DNA from: Levilactobacillus fuyuanensis
GTDB taxonomy: Bacteria > Bacillota > Bacilli > Lactobacillales > Lactobacillaceae
Reading direction: 5' to 3'
Assembly (NCBI RefSeq): GCF_003946395.1
Contig: NZ_RHNZ01000005.1
Location: forward strand, 124,001-188,000
Length of the DNA stretch: 64,000 bases
Notes under the pieces: model-generated
The model's database searches: none
Told to the model about the DNA's origin: nothing
Seen by the model: the letters and a program-made list of their open reading frames with translations, nothing else
Program-made: the position numbers and the translations under genes
Part shown: piece by piece, positions 53,961 to 60,781 of the stretch
Numbering within the stretch: position 1 is the stretch's first letter
How the letters are laid out: the number at the start of each line of letters is the position of its first letter

Positions 53961-55259
53961 ATGGATTATGGAAATGAACCACATGGCATGTTTTTCATGA
54001 TTGATAATAAGTCCTTTTACGCCAGCGTCGAGAGCGACGCGCGGGGACTGAATCCATTGCGTTCAGTGATTGTGGTGATGTCCGAGGCCGACAACACGGG
54101 AAGTGGTCTGGTGTTGGCCGCTTCGCCGATGGCCAAGAAACTCTTCGGTATCAGCAACGTATCACGCCAATATGAAGTTCCCGACGACCCCCGAATTCTG
54201 GTCGTCCCGCCGCGGATGAATCTGTACATTCAGGAGAACTTGAAGATCAATAAAATTTTCCGGGAGTATGTGGCCGATAATGACCTGTTTCCATACTCAA
54301 TCGACGAATCTATCCTGGATATGACCAAGTCCTGGCGCCTATTTGGACCGACCCCCGAGATTGTGGCCCGGCGAATTCAACTGCGGATTCGCCGCGAGCT
54401 GGGACTCTACACGACCGTGGGTATCGGTGAAAATCCGGTACAGGCCAAGCTGGCCCTGGACTTGCAGGCGAAGCATGACCGGGAACTCATCGGCCGGCTG
54501 ACTTACGAGACCTTTCCAGAGAAAATATGGCCAATCACCAACCTCGAGAAGGTGTGGAGCATTGGCCATCGCACGGCCGCTCATCTGCAGCGACTGGGCA
54601 TCCATAGCATGCGTGACTTGGCGATGGTCAACCCTTATGAGTTGCGCGCGGAGATGGGAATGATTGGTGCCCAGCTGTTTGCTTTGGCCTGGGGGATCGA
54701 TCGCAGTCACCTGCACGAGCTTCGACCGGCCAAGGAGAAGAGCTGGAGCAATTCACAGGTCTTACCACGCGACTATAAAGTGCAGCAAGAGATTGAGCTG
54801 GTGATCCGGGAGATCGGCCAGCAGACCACGTCGCGGATGCGCCATCATCGACAACAAGCTGGTTGCGTCAGTTTGTCTGTTGGTTTTGCCCGTGCGGGTG
54901 AAGCGGACGATGGGCGCAGTGGGTTCCACCACAGCTGTCGCATCGACCCGACCGATAATGCCCAGACGATTTGTGCCACGTTGATACGGCTCTTCCGTCA
55001 GCATTGGGAAGGCCAGTCCATTCGCAACATCGGTGTGGGATTATCGCGGTTGAATACAAGCCGTGGCTTGCAACTCGATATTTTTCAAGATCCCCACCGG
55101 CAGATTAAGGATGAACGCTTCGACCGGGTCATTGACGAACTTCGGGATAAGTTCGGCAAGACCGCGGTCATTCCAGCCAGCAGTCTAATGCCTGGGGGCA
55201 CGATGCTCCGGCGGGCTGCATTGGTTGGCGGTCACAATGGAGGGAATAGTTTTGATTGA
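53961..55259 (+). CDS. Y-family DNA polymerase (UmuC/UvrX type)
   Basis: Error-prone translesion polymerase of 432 residues. The metal Asp is in MIDNKSFYASVES, and the second pair is in YSIDESILDMT; a HhH region (about 205-235) and little-finger domain (about 255-370) follow. It belongs to the Gram-positive UvrX/UmuC group, not DinB. RBS AAAGGGGG eight bases before ATG 53961. A perfect LexA box in the promoter shows SOS control. The next two genes follow directly. Confidence 0.9.
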   Translation: MDYGNEPHGMFFMIDNKSFYASVESDARGLNPLRSVIVVMSEADNTGSGLVLAASPMAKKLFGISNVSRQYEVPDDPRILVVPPRMNLYIQENLKINKIFREYVADNDLFPYSIDESILDMTKSWRLFGPTPEIVARRIQLRIRRELGLYTTVGIGENPVQAKLALDLQAKHDRELIGRLTYETFPEKIWPITNLEKVWSIGHRTAAHLQRLGIHSMRDLAMVNPYELRAEMGMIGAQLFALAWGIDRSHLHELRPAKEKSWSNSQVLPRDYKVQQEIELVIREIGQQTTSRMRHHRQQAGCVSLSVGFARAGEADDGRSGFHHSCRIDPTDNAQTICATLIRLFRQHWEGQSIRNIGVGLSRLNTSRGLQLDIFQDPHRQIKDERFDRVIDELRDKFGKTAVIPASSLMPGGTMLRRAALVGGHNGGNSFD

Positions 55260-55560
55260 TGTGCAGAAGGAAGCCGACTTGATCTTTACGCGAGCAGACA
55301 AGCTGTTTGCAGCGCAGTGGCACTGTCAGTATCGCATTGATGTGGTGCATGACCAGTACGCCCAGACAACCAATTTCTTCATGGATATTCAGCGGAAGGG
55401 CCACCGTGAGCGGTCCATTCCACTACACACGATTCAAACGACTGACCTCGAAATCCTGGAACAAGTCATTGGGGCACTCAAGGCACAGACCCAGCTGTCC
55501 CTGAACTTTATTAACTTTGGGCACGTGCGCTGGCCGGAGAGCCAACGCTGGGTGCACTAG
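55252..55560 (+). CDS. Hypothetical protein in the SOS operon
   Basis: 102-residue unrecognised cytoplasmic protein (MIDVQKEADLIFTRADKLFA...). TTG at 55252 is chosen for GGAGGG eight bases upstream and overlaps the polymerase gene by eight bases, indicating translational coupling. Its place between UvrX-type polymerase and a YolD-like gene suggests a role with the polymerase. Confidence 0.7.
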   Translation: MIDVQKEADLIFTRADKLFAAQWHCQYRIDVVHDQYAQTTNFFMDIQRKGHRERSIPLHTIQTTDLEILEQVIGALKAQTQLSLNFINFGHVRWPESQRWVH

Positions 55561-55573
55561 GAAGTTATGGGTC

Positions 55574-55957
55574 ATGATCTTACACCAGGCCCCTGATGAT
55601 AAGTTGGCAACTGAATTCTTCCACCGCGACTATCACGACCGGGGGATGCTGAAGTGGGGCGGCTTTTACCTGTCCGACCATACGAGCGCCTTGGCTAAAA
55701 TGCACGCCGCCGAGCGGGTTGAACACGCCCAGCCGCAACAACCGCTGACAGAGATCAGTCGGGAGTTGGCGGCCGCTTGGCATGCACAACAACCGGTCCA
55801 CTTGCAGCTGAATATTTTGGATGACGACCAGGTCCTAACGACGGTGGACGGGATCGTTGCCGGCGTTAACGAAGACCAAATCGTTCTCCAATTAGCGAGC
55901 GACCACTTCCGCTACTTGACGTTGGCTGAAATTCGTTGGGTGGCGTGGGCACAGTAG
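55574..55957 (+). CDS. YolD-like protein
   Basis: 127 residues with the YolD core DRGMLKWGGFYLSDHTSAL (about 23-41) and a C-terminal strand-rich half (VDGIVAGVNEDQIVLQLA). YolD-like genes commonly accompany UvrX/UmuC polymerases in Gram-positive bacteria and are thought to play an accessory role like UmuD. The ATG is 13 bases after the previous stop. Confidence 0.7.
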   Translation: MILHQAPDDKLATEFFHRDYHDRGMLKWGGFYLSDHTSALAKMHAAERVEHAQPQQPLTEISRELAAAWHAQQPVHLQLNILDDDQVLTTVDGIVAGVNEDQIVLQLASDHFRYLTLAEIRWVAWAQ

Positions 55958-56045
55958 ACGGACCAGCATTCACGACAGCTAACTAATGGATGGGATAGGC
56001 TGATGGTTAACCAACTTAATGTATTGATATGATAAGTGTCGCAAT

Positions 56046-56117
56046 TTTAAACGCTTTCATGTATGATAGGCAGTGAAAAATGGCCCCCAGATAATTAATT
56101 ATCTGAGGACCGTTTGG
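56046..56117 (+). promoter_or_regulatory. Promoter-like segment followed by a hairpin
   Basis: TTTAAACGCTTTCA resembles a cre; TATGAT follows at 56063 and 25 bases later the hairpin CCCCAGATAATTAATTATCTGAGG with a weak T tail. A similar segment (GATAAAGGTCGCTATTTTAA) is repeated at about 56190. GGGTTGGGG/CCCAACCC at about 56224 is a further hairpin. No gene in gap 55958-56306. Confidence 0.35.
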
Positions 56118-56306
56118 TTCTAATGATTGTGAAGCTGGATGAACAACCGACTGGACTGCTCAGACCGTTAGTCAGTAAGCCCATGGGTACGATAAAGGTC
56201 GCTATTTTAAGCAAACTCCTGTAGGGTTGGGGATAACCCAACCCGTTACCGGCCATTTACCTAGCGATGCGTTATGATAAGGGTAAAACGCTAGGAGGTC
56301 ACGCAC

Positions 56307-56690
56307 ATGGACTTTATTGATTTAACGCCGATTGCCCTCAGTCACACGCCACTGGGAACCCGTTCCCAATTGCCCAAGCAACACGATTGGCAATTGGACT
56401 GGGTGACCCTGGCGGCCCTGATTCGTGATAATCACGATGTTATGGCGGTAGTGCAGGCGGGGCTGGCCGAGGATTGGCTGAATACGCAAGGCACCATTTG
56501 GGATGAGCAACAGGGATACTACCGTTACCCTAATGATCCCCGAGAACCCGACGATACCGTTTTCTGGGCGGCATCGACGTGGGCCACGCCGGCAATTCTG
56601 GTCACGTTTCATAACGAACTGACCAAGGCGTTTGCCTGTTACACGGTCGGTCGTGATCCGGACTTTCACTATTTAGGCAGATTGCAGTAA
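56307..56690 (+). CDS. Hypothetical protein
   Basis: 127-residue soluble protein without recognised domain, rich in Trp, Asp and His (MDFIDLTPIALSHTPLG...). Strong ribosome site (CTAGGAGG). It is followed after 27 bases by a small membrane protein gene and a terminator, so they form a two-gene operon. Confidence 0.65.
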   Translation: MDFIDLTPIALSHTPLGTRSQLPKQHDWQLDWVTLAALIRDNHDVMAVVQAGLAEDWLNTQGTIWDEQQGYYRYPNDPREPDDTVFWAASTWATPAILVTFHNELTKAFACYTVGRDPDFHYLGRLQ

Positions 56691-56717
56691 CTCTGGACCC
56701 GTGAAAGGAGAACCATC

Positions 56718-56843
56718 ATGAAATTAGTCGACGGACCCCACCTCACCTTACGCCTGGAGCGCACACCGCGCCGGGGGAAGTACGAGGCTGGCATTGGCCT
56801 AGCCGTCTTATTGATGATTGGTGTTATTTTCGCACTATTGTAG
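56718..56843 (+). CDS. Small membrane protein (41 residues)
   Basis: 41-residue frame starting MKLVDGPHLTLRLERTPRRG and ending in one hydrophobic helix (about residues 25-41). AAAGGAG lies seven bases before the ATG; a terminator follows. Basic head plus helix would give an inside-N topology. It is probably co-transcribed with the 56307 gene. Function unknown. Confidence 0.65.
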   Translation: MKLVDGPHLTLRLERTPRRGKYEAGIGLAVLLMIGVIFALL

Positions 56844-56873
56844 CCCAATTTTTACCGATAGAAGTTAGCAAAG

Positions 56874-56910
56874 GGAACGTCAGCGCCGGGCAGGCGTCGA
56901 TGTTCCCTTT
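56874..56910 (+). terminator. Terminator after the small membrane protein gene
   Basis: GGGAACGTCAGCGCC / GGCGTCGATGTTCCC stem with TTT. Confidence 0.8.
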
Positions 56911-56925
56911 GTTGGAGATTGAGTT

Positions 56926-57003
56926 ATGGTAGTTATTCCAGGCGGAACCGATCAAAGTGCCGGTCCGTCTCGGGGCCAGTATAACATTGTGGAACAAGTT
57001 TGA
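56926..57003 (+). CDS. Possible 25-residue peptide, YjzC-like start
   Basis: Frame beginning MVVIPGGTDQSAGPSRGQYN, with GGAG nine bases before the ATG. The PGT-D...GQY pattern recalls YjzC/YhdX-type small proteins, but it stops early after VEQV. It may be a truncated copy or chance. Confidence 0.3.
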   Translation: MVVIPGGTDQSAGPSRGQYNIVEQV

Positions 57004-57102
57004 GCAGTATTTGTGTTGAGAAAAAGAGTGGATTGTCGCAATCAGTAAAAATATTCGGTCACATTTTACGGAGTTAAGTCATGTAACCTAAAAACTCCGG
57101 AA

Positions 57103-57711
57103 ATGATGGTGCTGATGGATAATCTTGTGATAATTGAAGAAGTGGCAATTGCACTCAAAGACATGTATGATGCGTTTAGCATTGAATTCTATACTGATTT
57201 GGGACAGGAAAACCTGAAAAACCTGAAACATGTGGAAATTGGTGAAAATGAGAATTGGTGCCAGGTGGAACCACTGGTTAGACAATATGTTCATTTCTTA
57301 AGAAAATTGGATATTTTACAGTTAAATCAGCTTGAGTATGATTTGAATTTTCAGTATCGAATTAAAGCAGTCACAGGTGTCTCTACCAAAATTGCTTATA
57401 ATTATGGCAAACATCGCTACGTTTCAAAGATTATAAATGATCTATTTGGTGCTCGAATTGTTTTAAGTGGAATTGAGGCGCAGCAGGAGAGATTAGATAG
57501 GCTGCTACAAAGATTAAAAGATGGCCAAGTAATTTCTAGATATTACACGCGTCATGATGGTAAGTATCATGCCACACATTGTTATTTTCAGAGTGACAAT
57601 CGTTATTTCCCCTGGGAACTTCAAATCTGGGATAAAAATCGAGAACTTAAGAATTATAGTGAACATGTGCGACATGAGAAGGAACGTCACATGCAGGAAG
57701 GAATTGACTGA
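57103..57711 (+). CDS. RelA/SpoT-domain nucleotidyltransferase-like protein
   Basis: 202 residues with the small alarmone synthetase fold: RIKAVTGVSTKIA (Arg86/Lys88), YVSKIINDLFGARIVL (Asp113, Arg118), DGKYHATHCYF (the GYxSxH-like motif, 153-162) and WELQIWD (Glu172, Gln174). N-terminal 80 residues are an extra helical part. It differs from housekeeping RelQ/RelP in these motifs and is next to a small partner gene (57714). That arrangement is known for toxic synthetases (toxSAS) that modify tRNA or nucleotides. The region is more AT-rich than its surroundings, a sign of acquisition. No clear ribosome site; ATG 57103 or 57115. Confidence 0.7.
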   Translation: MMVLMDNLVIIEEVAIALKDMYDAFSIEFYTDLGQENLKNLKHVEIGENENWCQVEPLVRQYVHFLRKLDILQLNQLEYDLNFQYRIKAVTGVSTKIAYNYGKHRYVSKIINDLFGARIVLSGIEAQQERLDRLLQRLKDGQVISRYYTRHDGKYHATHCYFQSDNRYFPWELQIWDKNRELKNYSEHVRHEKERHMQEGID

Positions 57712-57713
57712 GG

Positions 57714-58004
57714 ATGTACAAATACTTTCATTTAATTGTTATTTCACAATTTGGAAATCAGGCCTTGGCCTATCACTACGCGAGTCTCGAGTCTGAGGCA
57801 GTGAGTACACGTTGGGACACATTAATGGAAAAATCTAAGGTACAGGGTCCAGTGTACAGTTTGCACATGGTAAAGTCGGCTAGTCCTGATTTTAAGGGTA
57901 TTCAGGAACGTGACCCTTATTTTCAAAAATTCGAAGTCTTTGAAGATCTCGACGAATTCCTCGATACGGTCTACCACCTCGCTCAAAAAACTAACGCTAT
58001 CTAA
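57714..58004 (+). CDS. Small partner of the RelA/SpoT-domain gene
   Basis: 96-residue unrecognised protein (MYKYFHLIVISQFGNQALAY...), starting two bases after the preceding stop, with GAGG inside that junction. No domain assigned. Its last third is acidic (FEVFEDLDEFLDTVYHL). If the first gene is a toxin, this would be the antitoxin candidate. Alternatively it is a subunit or an effector. Confidence 0.6.
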   Translation: MYKYFHLIVISQFGNQALAYHYASLESEAVSTRWDTLMEKSKVQGPVYSLHMVKSASPDFKGIQERDPYFQKFEVFEDLDEFLDTVYHLAQKTNAI

Positions 58005-58010
58005 GACCCA

Positions 58011-58062
58011 CAAAAGCCAGTGTCTCCACGACTTAACCGTCGCACGGACACTGGCTTTTTAA
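58011..58062. terminator. Bidirectional terminator at 58.0 kb
   Basis: AAAAGCCAGTGTC / GACACTGGCTTTT stem; serves the convergent genes on both sides. Confidence 0.88.
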
Positions 58063-58071
58063 GTTGAAAAT

Positions 58072-59175
58072 TTAGAATTTATTGTTGGTTGCTTGCATCA
58101 GTTCGGCACCCTTGTTGACTAACAGGTAGCTGGCGCCGTTCTTGGCGAATTGAATCCCTTCGAACTCACGCTTACCGCTGAAGTTAGACCCTTCAACTTG
58201 GCTGGCCTTGAGCTTGCCCAGCTTGGAAGCGGGGACGGATGAGATACTGCTGTCGGAGACGAAGTACAGCCGGTTACGCTTGGCGTTGTAGGCCATTGAC
58301 TGTGGCTTGGTCCCGGGACGGTTGCGCAGACCCTGCATCACCAAGTGGAACTTGACGGACTTGCTGCCAATCTTTCCCTTGTAGATCTTGACAGCACCCT
58401 TAGGCGCCCACCCCCCATTGGAGTATGTAAAGAAGTAGGCATTCCCGTTCTTATCAAACGTCAGGTTAGAGCCCATCGTGACGGTACTCTTCAGCTTAAA
58501 GTTAATCTTAGTAATTGGCTTCAAGCTGCTAGTGCTGACCCGTTGCACGTTGGTGTTAACAGCGACCGGCTTACCGATGAACCAGAGTTGGCCGTTCTTG
58601 GGGTTCATTGCCAAAGATTGACCATGGCCCGTGTTAAAGGTGGGACCAACCTTGACGTACTTCATGATCTGCTTGTCTTTGCTGGTCATCTTGCCCACAG
58701 AGTGGTCGTAAGAAGCCCGACGTAAGGCATCCATGTGACTGCTGCTGACGCCGAATTTACTACGGAGTTGGCCCAGGTTGTACTTAACGATCCAGCCCCG
58801 GTTACTCCCGTTCTTCGTGATCAGTTCGTACAGCGTGTTGCCATCCTTAGACATGGCTTCGGCTTGAGGATTGCCCCAGTCGGCGGACGTCTTGTAGGTT
58901 ACTGGCAAGAAGACGTTGGACTTGAAAGTGGCTTTCTTCCCCTTAGTCGTGGTGATGCTGGTTGGCTTGGTCTGGAAGATGTTGCTGTAGCTGGTCTTAA
59001 ACGAGTAGCGCTTAACGAATAAGTTCTTGTTTGCGACCGTCTTATACTTCTTGACGTTGTAGTTTGCCAACGCGTTACCCTTTTGATTATACGTCTTGGC
59101 CTGTGCCAGCGTGGTCGACCCGCCAAATAATAGGGCGGCCGCAGCGACAGTGGTCAATAGAACTGCTTTCTTCAT
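58072..59175 (-). CDS. Secreted hypothetical protein, possibly beta-propeller
   Basis: 367-residue exported protein. Signal peptide MKKAVLLTTVAAAALLFGG with cleavage near LAQAKT. The rest is basic with repeated strand patterns (SLAMNPKNGQLWFIG, NLTFDKNGNAYFFTY, SMAYNAKRNRLYFVSD, GIQFAKNGASYLLVN) that look like blades of a beta-propeller of the NHL/SMP type. AGGAGGAG precedes ATG 59175; the longer frame has no ribosome site. Role unknown; common in lactobacilli. Confidence 0.75.
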   Translation of the reverse strand: MKKAVLLTTVAAAALLFGGSTTLAQAKTYNQKGNALANYNVKKYKTVANKNLFVKRYSFKTSYSNIFQTKPTSITTTKGKKATFKSNVFLPVTYKTSADWGNPQAEAMSKDGNTLYELITKNGSNRGWIVKYNLGQLRSKFGVSSSHMDALRRASYDHSVGKMTSKDKQIMKYVKVGPTFNTGHGQSLAMNPKNGQLWFIGKPVAVNTNVQRVSTSSLKPITKINFKLKSTVTMGSNLTFDKNGNAYFFTYSNGGWAPKGAVKIYKGKIGSKSVKFHLVMQGLRNRPGTKPQSMAYNAKRNRLYFVSDSSISSVPASKLGKLKASQVEGSNFSGKREFEGIQFAKNGASYLLVNKGAELMQATNNKF

Positions 59176-59603
59176 ATATCCGAATCTCCTCCTGAAATTG
59201 CGCGCCTGGTGGGGGGCTATAGTAGCTGAACGATGGTGCGCACCGTCACTTGACGAATGCGCTTTCAATCGAACCGGTCACACCAACCCAAAACCTTCTA
59301 GGCACACTAAATTCGTATCACATAACTATTTATACCACAAAATAATCAGTGTGAGGGGACGAAACCCGAAATTTATTTTCGACTCAAATCGAAAAAATCG
59401 CCCTGGTTCCCGAAATAACGGGCCGGAGCGTCGATCACGTCCTATCAGCTTTTTGGCCTTTTTTTCGATAAATTGTGTAAAATTACCCCGAATTTTCCAC
59501 CTGTTTTGCGAAATAATCCGCATTAGGCGTTGTCACTAAACTCCGGTAAAGTGGGGGCTGACCATAGCGCTATGGATCACCACAAGTGAAGGGATGATCC
59601 ATA
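59176..59603. other. Intergenic region upstream of the sigma factor
   Basis: No gene seen. AT-rich with a few GC-rich patches; no clear promoter could be fixed for the plus-strand sigma gene. Confidence 0.5.
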
Positions 59604-60164
59604 TTGACCACAGATAACGCCGCCGCGTACCGCTTCTTGTATACCGGCGATCACGAAACTATTATTTACGCTGCCCTGAAACGCCTGCGATTGCGTCCGG
59701 ATCAGGACGATTACGAAGACTACCTGCAGGAGGCCCGGCTGTACTTTCCCCAGGCCTACGCAGACTTTCCCGGTGACCCAGATAGTCAGCCACACCAGCT
59801 ATTGGCGTTTGCCCAGCAGGCGCTGGTCTGGCACGTGGGTAATCAGCTACGAAACAATCGCCGCCAGGATATTCCCATGGAGCCGGGGGACCACACGCCG
59901 ATCATTGACGAACTGGCCAGTGACGAGGATATTCTGAACGCCATTGGCCTCAACGACTTTCGGACGTACCTCATCAAGTTGATCGGTGGTGCGGGGAATA
60001 CCGGTGAATGGCGGTTTCTAGTCGGCACCCTGATCGATCAGCTCACGCCAGAGGAGATTGCCGCCAAATATGGTGTTGGCCGGGCAACCGTCTTCCGGTG
60101 GCGGCGATCATTACTGCGTCGACTCGTCCATCATTTAGCACCGCCAGAAAGTTTTTTGGAATAA
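59604..60164 (+). CDS. comX: ComX/SigH-like alternative sigma factor
   Basis: 186 residues of a sigma-70 family factor with region 2-like helices (about 20-85) and a region 4 helix-turn-helix near the end (LTPEEIAAKYGVGRATVFRWRRSLLRRL). Lactobacilli carry one such factor, usually named ComX or SigX, linked to competence genes. Starts at TTG 59604 after GAAGGGATG. Two small genes of the DUF1659 and DUF2922 families follow, a common arrangement. Gene symbol by analogy. Confidence 0.7.
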   Translation: MTTDNAAAYRFLYTGDHETIIYAALKRLRLRPDQDDYEDYLQEARLYFPQAYADFPGDPDSQPHQLLAFAQQALVWHVGNQLRNNRRQDIPMEPGDHTPIIDELASDEDILNAIGLNDFRTYLIKLIGGAGNTGEWRFLVGTLIDQLTPEEIAAKYGVGRATVFRWRRSLLRRLVHHLAPPESFLE

Positions 60165-60267
60165 TTTGAAAATAAGTGAGACTGATTTCCGATTTTTTAC
60201 ATTAGTAATAAGTGTAAGGGTTGGCCAGCCACTTATAAAATCTCGCACCACGGAAGGAGCACCACCC

Positions 60268-60465
60268 ATGCAAACAAATTGGAAGAAAACGACCATCACC
60301 TTTATCTTCGGCGCCACCGACGCCAAGCCCGTTAAGATCGTGCTACAGAATGCGGTCAACGCGCCAGCCGCCAAGCAAGTCGAAGATTTCGGGGCCATCC
60401 TCTCCGGTTTGACCGGCTTACCGTTCCGTACCGCCGTCGTGTCCAGTCAAAGCGCCGTCGCCTAA
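60268..60465 (+). CDS. DUF1659-type small protein
   Basis: 65 residues (MQTNWKKTTITFIFGATDAK...) resembling DUF1659 proteins. GGAAGGAG precedes ATG 60268; the longer frame from 60166 lacks one. Followed 33 bases later by a DUF2922 gene; the pair is common in Firmicutes, role unknown. Confidence 0.7.
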   Translation: MQTNWKKTTITFIFGATDAKPVKIVLQNAVNAPAAKQVEDFGAILSGLTGLPFRTAVVSSQSAVA

Positions 60466-60498
60466 GTCCCTCTCGCAGAATAGAAAGGAAGTCTCTCT

Positions 60499-60744
60499 AT
60501 GAAGACATTAGAATTGAGTTTTAAAGGTTCCGACAAACGCGTCAAACACCTGCGCCTCAAGTACGTCAACGCCGACCTCGCACCAGCGGAAGTCGAAACG
60601 TTGATGAAGCAAGTGGCGGCCGCTAAGTTATTCGCTAAGGGCGAGGTGGATCTGTACGCAGAACCTCTGCGTGCTGAAATCGTGGAAACGACCAAGACGG
60701 CCTTGGTGGGCGGACCACAACCCGTACCAGCACCCACTGTCTAG
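60499..60744 (+). CDS. DUF2922-type small protein
   Basis: 81 residues (MKTLELSFKGSDKRVKHLRL...) of the DUF2922 type. AAAGGAAG precedes the ATG. A terminator follows 40 bases later. Function unknown; partner of the previous gene. Confidence 0.75.
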   Translation: MKTLELSFKGSDKRVKHLRLKYVNADLAPAEVETLMKQVAAAKLFAKGEVDLYAEPLRAEIVETTKTALVGGPQPVPAPTV

Positions 60745-60781
60745 TCAGTATCAGTCGTAGTTAGTCACCTGTAACGCAACA

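What the first reader, a model, noticed from the sequence alone, without database searches (positions are those of the whole stretch)
57103..58004. Candidate toxSAS-like module: RelA/SpoT-domain gene with small partner
A short RelA/SpoT-fold protein with extra N-terminal helices and non-standard motifs (YHATH, ELQIWD) is followed after two bases by an unrecognised 96-residue gene. The pair is AT-richer than its neighbours and ends at a terminator. Toxic small alarmone synthetases of defence and TA systems have this layout. The partner is not one of the antitoxins I can recall.
Basis: partly seen in the sequence, partly recalled or inferred. Interest (0 to 1): 0.72.

Follow-up and report, generated by a model that had tools for sequence, protein, structure and literature searches.

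The report
Translation-blocking toxin with stripped-down antidote
A lactic acid bacterium carries a two-gene poison-and-antidote module of a known kind, in which the enzyme probably blocks protein synthesis by modifying tRNA and the small antidote is a stripped-down form that has lost a domain most of its relatives keep.

Summary
Gene 1 (57103-57711, 202 aa) is a toxic small alarmone synthetase (toxSAS), nearest to the PhRel2 type: closest solved relative FaRel2, kin of phage Lily PhRel2, most catalytic residues intact, apart from the genome's own short synthetases. Gene 2 (57714-58004, 96 aa) is PAD1, the neutralising N-terminal domain of Panacea antitoxins, standing alone. In 98 related genomes (the window's included) all 9 intact toxin genes have PAD1 directly downstream. 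In 55 of 66 PAD1-linked rows PAD1 is fused to Panacea; Levilactobacillus and two Companilactobacillus loci lack Panacea, probably through two losses. The module behaves as an AT-rich insert of about 1 kb; four relatives have 61-70 bp there. Best reading: a type II toxin-antitoxin whose toxin pyrophosphorylates tRNA CCA ends and whose PAD1 blocks the ATP site; an antiphage role is inferred. Isolated PAD1 and one natural Panacea-less antitoxin are published as neutralising PhRel2 toxins, so this is a new member of a known kind, useful as a natural test of Panacea's role. Side lead: 15 bee-pathogen phage records carry PAD1 with no toxSAS detected.

The parts
57103..57711 (+). PhRel2-type toxSAS toxin gene, 202 aa (possible true start at 57115, giving 198 aa)
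   Evidence: Pfam RelA_SpoT E=1.8e-4, below its cut-off; phrog_4012 E=7e-30; best PDB relatives FaRel2 (profile E=1.6e-11); R86, K88, K96, D113, R118, Y155, H159, E172 invariant in 13 of 13 homologues
57714..58004 (+). standalone PAD1 antitoxin gene, 96 aa, no Panacea domain
   Evidence: aligns with the N-terminal domain of PAD1-Panacea proteins; model pLDDT 93.8; top three Foldseek hits of the PDB are ATfaRel2 chains, E 0.04-0.18
58012..58059 (.). stem-loop, probably a bidirectional terminator native to the insertion site
   Evidence: 13-bp perfect inverted repeat; similar stem-loop by eye in four genomes without the module
57012..58072 (.). approximate extent of the AT-rich insert relative to related genomes
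   Evidence: flank matches end at window 57012 and resume at 58065-58072, with 61-70 bp between them in four relatives

Best explanation
A type II toxin-antitoxin module. [quoted passage not shown] The second gene makes a standalone PAD1 domain that docks on the toxin and shuts its ATP (donor) site. The ancestral antitoxin was probably PAD1 fused to Panacea; here Panacea is gone and PAD1 suffices. Most likely benefit (about 0.5 on its own): abortive defence against phage, set off when PAD1 is pulled away or stops being made. Shown here: the pair, its conservation, catalytic residues, domain identity, absence of Panacea, insertion site. Inferred from published relatives: tRNA target, donor-site block, neutralisation. 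Inferred without direct evidence: phage defence and trigger. The confidence below is for the toxin-antitoxin mechanism, not for the benefit.
For: Toxin: nearest solved sequences are FaRel2; the model of the L. hammesii homologue scores Z 13.4 with FaRel2 (158 residues, 3.0 A) against 7.2 for RelQ. It lies in one family with phage Lily's enzyme (32% identity, E=4e-14), which PMC11782079 names PhRel2 (section read). The own genome has three other RelA_SpoT genes over the cut-off, a 750-aa open frame and two short ones; the split between the two short ones and the 105 homologues has support 99 (quick tree). Partner: PAD1 hit E=2e-34 with an HMM that was built with it included; adjacent in 9 of 9 intact toxin loci of 98 genomes, the window's own included, and in 66 of 105 distinct toxin rows (55 fused to Panacea, 11 alone; the 39 without are one clade of 37 plus 2 cut by contig ends). 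Published: isolated PAD1 neutralises PhRel2, and a natural Panacea-less PAD1 pair from C. hylemonae is a validated TA (PMC10440598 passages); pZFD/PAD1 antitoxins go with tRNA-modifying toxSASs (PMC11782079).
Against: No experiment. Pfam RelA_SpoT is below its cut-off and PADLOC finds nothing. FaRel2 S70 and R77 are G92 and Y99 here. The PAD1 fold match is weak: Foldseek E 0.04, and Z 4.9 is within 1 of unrelated rows; no PDB sequence relative. The fused pseudo-complex had pTM 0.70 and its domain arrangement did not match CapRel (rmsd 11.7 A, 16.5-17.4 A), so the interface is untested. Solo PAD1 or PanA copies without a toxin occur in several relatives, so the domain may have another use. The consensus scan shows no promoter-like site on the + strand between 56680 and the start of gene 1.
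Confidence: 0.85

Rival explanations
1. A toxSAS that makes toxic (pp)pApp and drains ATP, like FaRel or Tas1, with the small partner as inhibitor.
For: Same superfamily; Tas1 appears among structural matches (Z 4.2).
Against: FaRel2 is far closer (Z 13.4; E=1.6e-11). (pp)pApp makers are neutralised by Tis1-like domains at the acceptor site, tRNA modifiers by pZFD/PAD1 at the donor site (PMC11782079, section read).
Confidence: 0.07
2. An accessory (p)ppGpp synthetase with a small regulator, i.e. a stress-response enzyme and not a toxin.
For: RelA_SpoT fold.
Against: The genome already has a 750-aa-frame RelA_SpoT gene and two short ones over the cut-off; gene 1 lies apart from the short ones, is patchily distributed (11 of 98 genomes), sits in an AT-rich insert with near-empty sites in relatives, and its partner is an antitoxin domain.
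Confidence: 0.04
3. A true toxin-antitoxin pair that is only a selfish addiction element, with no phage trigger; loss of the proposed sensor domain Panacea turned a defence system into a maintenance module. This disputes the benefit, not the mechanism.
For: Panacea is proposed to be the sensor (PMC10440598, passages read) and is missing here and in 9 other Lactobacillaceae loci; no phage gene recognised among the few flanking genes checked.
Against: In CapRel the pZFD antitoxin domain itself senses capsid protein (PMC9712102, passages read), so PAD1 may sense without Panacea; relatives occur in phages and viral contigs.
Confidence: 0.35

Closest known systems
PhRel2:PAD1 of Clostridium hylemonae DSM 15053 (PMC10440598, passages read)
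   Same: PhRel2-type toxin with an antitoxin that naturally lacks Panacea; validated as a TA
PhRel2:PanA of Bacillus subtilis Ia1a and Lactobacillus (now Ligilactobacillus) animalis (PMC8832971, PMC10440598, passages read)
   Same: toxSAS neutralised by a Panacea-containing antitoxin; in B. subtilis the PAD1 domain alone neutralises
   Different: Antitoxin carries Panacea; window partner ends after PAD1
Phage Lily PhRel2:PanA (L013; PMC11782079, section read)
   Same: Homologous toxin (32% identity, E=4e-14) followed by PAD1
   Different: Phage-borne; PAD1 fused to Panacea
FaRel2:ATfaRel2 (PDB 8pu1-8pu4)
   Same: Closest solved toxin; partner model's best fold match; short standalone antitoxin
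   Different: No sequence similarity detected between ATfaRel2 and the PAD1 profile
CapRel SJ46 (7ztb, 9erv)
   Same: toxSYNTH enzyme controlled by a small antitoxin domain
   Different: One fused protein; here two genes

Membership tests
toxSAS (toxic small alarmone synthetase) | single synthetase domain, no hydrolase domain | tested here: met
   202 aa; only RelA_SpoT matched in Pfam, weakly and below its cut-off
toxSAS (toxic small alarmone synthetase) | sequence and fold nearer to toxSAS than to housekeeping SAS | tested here: met
   FaRel2 best; homologue model Z 13.4 against 7.2; tree
toxSAS (toxic small alarmone synthetase) | catalytic residues intact | tested here: met
   R86, K88, K96, D113, R118, Y155, H159, E172 invariant in 13 of 13; the equivalents of FaRel2 S70 and R77 differ
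toxSAS (toxic small alarmone synthetase) | toxicity relieved by the neighbour's product | not testable with these tools
   needs expression assay
PhRel2 subfamily | groups with named PhRel2 enzymes rather than with PhRel, CapRel, FaRel or FaRel2 | tested here: inconclusive
PAD1 antitoxin domain | homology to N-terminal domain of PAD1-Panacea proteins, conserved His, gene downstream of toxin | tested here: met
   H6 and H51 nearly invariant in 50 rows
PanA (Panacea antitoxin) | Panacea (DUF4065) domain | tested here: not met
   no PF13274 match in gene 2; no Panacea match by own HMM in window 55001-60000
CapRel (fused) | toxin and antitoxin in one chain | tested here: not met
   two ORFs in different frames
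Housekeeping SAS (RelQ/RelP) | falls with the genome's own short synthetases | tested here: not met
   the two short ones split from the 105 homologues with support 99; calling them RelQ and RelP is my recall of their motifs
Anti-phage defence system | protects against phage | not testable with these tools
   no PADLOC match, which does not exclude it

The most novel reading that the evidence does not exclude
PAD1 alone is neutraliser and phage sensor in one: lineages that dropped Panacea rewired activation so that a phage protein peels PAD1 off the toxin, as capsid protein does to the CapRel antitoxin domain. In the same arms race, phages of Paenibacillus larvae carry orphan PAD1 genes as antidotes against the PhRel2 modules of competing phages.
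Probability: 0.2. Interest if true: 0.65.

Novelty: new member of a known kind. Interest (0 to 1): 0.36.

Why it matters
The kind is known, but one genus now offers matched modules with and without Panacea (window, L. parabrevis, L. hammesii against L. brevis CD0817). Panacea's role as a sensor is a hypothesis in PMC10440598 (passages read); comparing these natural variants would test it without engineered truncations.

Tried and rejected
Housekeeping synthetase: rejected by tree and genome content. Chance ORF pair: rejected by conservation. Prophage cargo in the window: no phage gene recognised, but only seven window proteins were scanned with Pfam, and three with PHROGs (the toxin itself matches phrog_4012). 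Link between Panacea loss and leaving a prophage: not seen; for seven fused Lactobacillaceae loci (L065, L068, L069, L070, L071, L073, L077) one to three flanking genes each were scanned and none was a recognised phage structural gene, though two matched PHROGs of unknown function. Reading the toxin-antitoxin interface from a fused model: no coordinates available, pTM 0.70, CapRel arrangement not reproduced. PAD1 profile against PDB sequences: nothing credible. Weak Pfam, NCBIfam and PHROG hits of gene 2 and the NCBIfam hits of gene 1 were set aside as chance. One loss of Panacea: not rejected (AU p 0.079), but two losses fit better. Paper searches on orphan PAD1 in phages, P. larvae phage TA systems and toxSAS counter-defence (listings, 15 of 389, 5 of 5 and 10 of 123 papers shown) showed nothing that I recognised on orphan PAD1; passages of PMC6070908 speak of HicAB systems, and 'pyrophosphokinase' and 'DUF4065' do not occur in it. 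A search for PhRel2, toxSAS or Lactobacillus (listing of 20) showed no paper on this locus.

Full report
What is there. The window holds two adjacent + strand genes, 57103-57711 (202 aa) and 57714-58004 (96 aa), two bases apart, at 35-40% GC; windows from 54000 to 56999 and 58000 to 60749 have 46-57%. A 13-bp inverted repeat starts 8 bases after the second stop.

Gene 1. Pfam gives RelA_SpoT at E=1.8e-4, under its cut-off; PHROGs gives phrog_4012 at 7e-30; PADLOC gives nothing and NCBIfam only two weak unrelated hits. In the PDB the only credible single-sequence relatives are FaRel2 entries (E about 3e-5); a 13-row profile gives FaRel2 1.6e-11, two GTP pyrophosphokinases 4e-4 and 1.5e-3, CapRel 4e-3. 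FaRel2 residues that coordinate substrate (R64, K66, K74, R95, Y128; PMC11782079 passages) correspond to R86, K88, K96, R118, Y155, all invariant in 13 of 13 homologues, as are D113, H159 and E172. S70 and R77 are not kept (G92, Y99). The window's genome has three other RelA_SpoT genes over the cut-off. In a tree of 105 homologues plus its two short ones, these two split off with support 99 (quick method, long branches flagged by the tool, one homologue, L088, joined near them).

Gene 2. Of four libraries none recognises it, but it aligns with the first 90 or so residues of longer proteins; 7 of 7 such long partners scanned carry SocA/Panacea (PF13274) in the C-terminal half and 3 of 3 short ones do not. 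The N-terminal part is what PMC8832971 calls PAD1 (passages read). H6 and H51 are nearly invariant in 50 rows. The model of the window protein has pLDDT 93.8; the top three of 350,542 PDB chains by Foldseek are ATfaRel2, the antitoxin of FaRel2 (E 0.04-0.18), and by VIA-align Z 4.9 over 75 residues, not well separated from unrelated rows. This agrees with PMC11782079, which calls PAD1 a subtype of the pZFD fold.

Co-conservation. Of 98 related genomes, own included, 11 have a toxin match. Nine are intact, and all nine have PAD1 directly downstream; the other two (G016 with stops, G069 in pieces) do not. L. parabrevis and L. cerevisiae have two tandem PAD1 genes. Several relatives have PAD1 or PanA without a toxin. 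The genome-contig scan confirmed 161 loci and kept the best 80; the viral scan kept 34. From these 114 loci, five annotated records and the window, 105 distinct toxin rows were kept: 55 with PAD1 fused to Panacea, 11 with PAD1 alone, 39 with no PAD1 by my HMM; 37 of these 39 form one clade and the other two are cut by contig ends. The scans favour kin of the query, so these are not frequencies.

Loss of Panacea. The PAD1-only rows are eight Levilactobacillus-type rows (six named species, one metagenome genome, the window, whose genus I infer), two Companilactobacillus, and one Phascolarctobacterium with a different C-terminal part. With 27 rows and the careful method, the Companilactobacillus pair groups with the fused Lentilactobacillus rapi locus (96/97), apart from the eight (89/93), so two losses fit best; one loss is not rejected (p-AU 0.079). 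My HMM found no Panacea in the DNA held around the ten Lactobacillaceae loci. The window's genome has four Panacea matches elsewhere and no second PAD1 match.

Site. L. parabrevis and L. hammesii carry the module at the same place (names matched through contig lengths). Of 35 genomes of the genus searched, I read the site in 12 others: four (G001, G025, G018, G016) have 61-70 bp between the same flanks, with a stem-loop; eight have 243-1430 bp of other DNA, with no toxin or PAD1 match worth the name (two weak toxin hits, E 0.002 and 0.07, lie in the flanks). So the module behaves as an insert of about 1 kb at a variable site; the direction of change is inferred.

How it probably works. [quoted passage not shown] PAD1 and pZFD antitoxins act on the ATP-donor site of tRNA-modifying toxSASs (PMC11782079, section read). 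Isolated PAD1 of B. subtilis Ia1a neutralises its toxin, H52P abolishes this, and a natural Panacea-less PAD1 from C. hylemonae neutralises its PhRel2 (PMC10440598, passages read). H51 here is the matching His. I infer the same chemistry and block. Defence against phage is an inference: some toxSAS modules defend (PMC9712102, passages read), and relatives occur in phages, but nothing here shows it for this pair.

Structure test of the complex. A read-through of the L. hammesii pair modelled well by domain (pLDDT 91.5) but with pTM 0.70. The toxin part matches FaRel2 at Z 13.4 and the antitoxin part ATfaRel2 at Z 5.2 over 71 residues, 2.7 A; the joint arrangement did not match CapRel. The interface is therefore not tested.

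Side lead. Of 31 phage records with PAD1, 16 also have the toxSAS (13 Lily-like, Callan, GBSV1 twice) and 15 P. larvae records (10 named phages) have PAD1 with no toxSAS detected at E<=1e-3. Five orphan phage sequences and one plasmid copy that I compared keep the IHK histidine; pairwise dN/dS was 0.10-0.51 where it could be computed. A phage-borne antidote against competitors' toxSAS is one reading.

Verdict. A well-supported new member of the PhRel2:PAD1 kind, in the Panacea-less form already known from one validated case. Moderate interest, mainly as a natural comparison for the role of Panacea.

Noticed in passing
L015:2995-3255, L016:2995-3414, L204:2001-2258, L205:1501-1920, L206:1501-1920: Orphan PAD1 genes in 15 records of Paenibacillus larvae phages without any detected toxSAS, with low dN/dS in the five phage copies compared, while 14 other P. 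larvae phage records carry the toxSAS and PAD1 (Panacea checked in Lily and Callan). Possible phage-borne antidotes.
   Followed up: partly
L017:2995-3252: The same orphan PAD1 on a P. larvae plasmid record, with annotated neighbours like those of phages API480 and SV21 (MazE/MazF nearby).
   Followed up: partly
L044:1489-1794, L045:1495-1797, L034:1438-1767, L036:1474-2208, L035:1501-2209: Toxin-less PAD1 or PAD1-Panacea genes in relatives of the genus; L035 is broken. L045 appears to follow a fumarase gene (by eye), as the complete module in L063 does, which suggests loss of the toxin at that site.
   Followed up: partly
L021:6863-7577, L023:7658-8286: Tandem duplicate PAD1 genes behind one toxin in L. 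parabrevis and L. cerevisiae.
   Followed up: no
L128:4551-5144: Phascolarctobacterium PAD1 followed by a C-terminal part that is not Panacea and has no confident Pfam match.
   Followed up: partly
L065:5786-7192: Downstream of the L. brevis CD0817 fused module lies a 468-aa AAA_21 ATPase (AbiEii-type Pfam name, phrog_5836 E=2.5e-49), a defence-like neighbour.
   Followed up: no
L020:2001-3357: In Streptococcus phage Javan5 a related short synthetase without PAD1 starts one base behind a CI-like repressor with an S24 peptidase domain, next to the integrase.
   Followed up: no
G000:C6:75433-77431 (L054-L056): Three Panacea matches in a row in the window's own genome, no PAD1 match there.
   Followed up: no
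L075:3639-5002: In the sequenced L. animalis KCTC 3501 the toxSAS-PanA locus is split over several ORFs in both genes, although an L. animalis pair is experimentally validated in print (PMC8832971).
   Followed up: no
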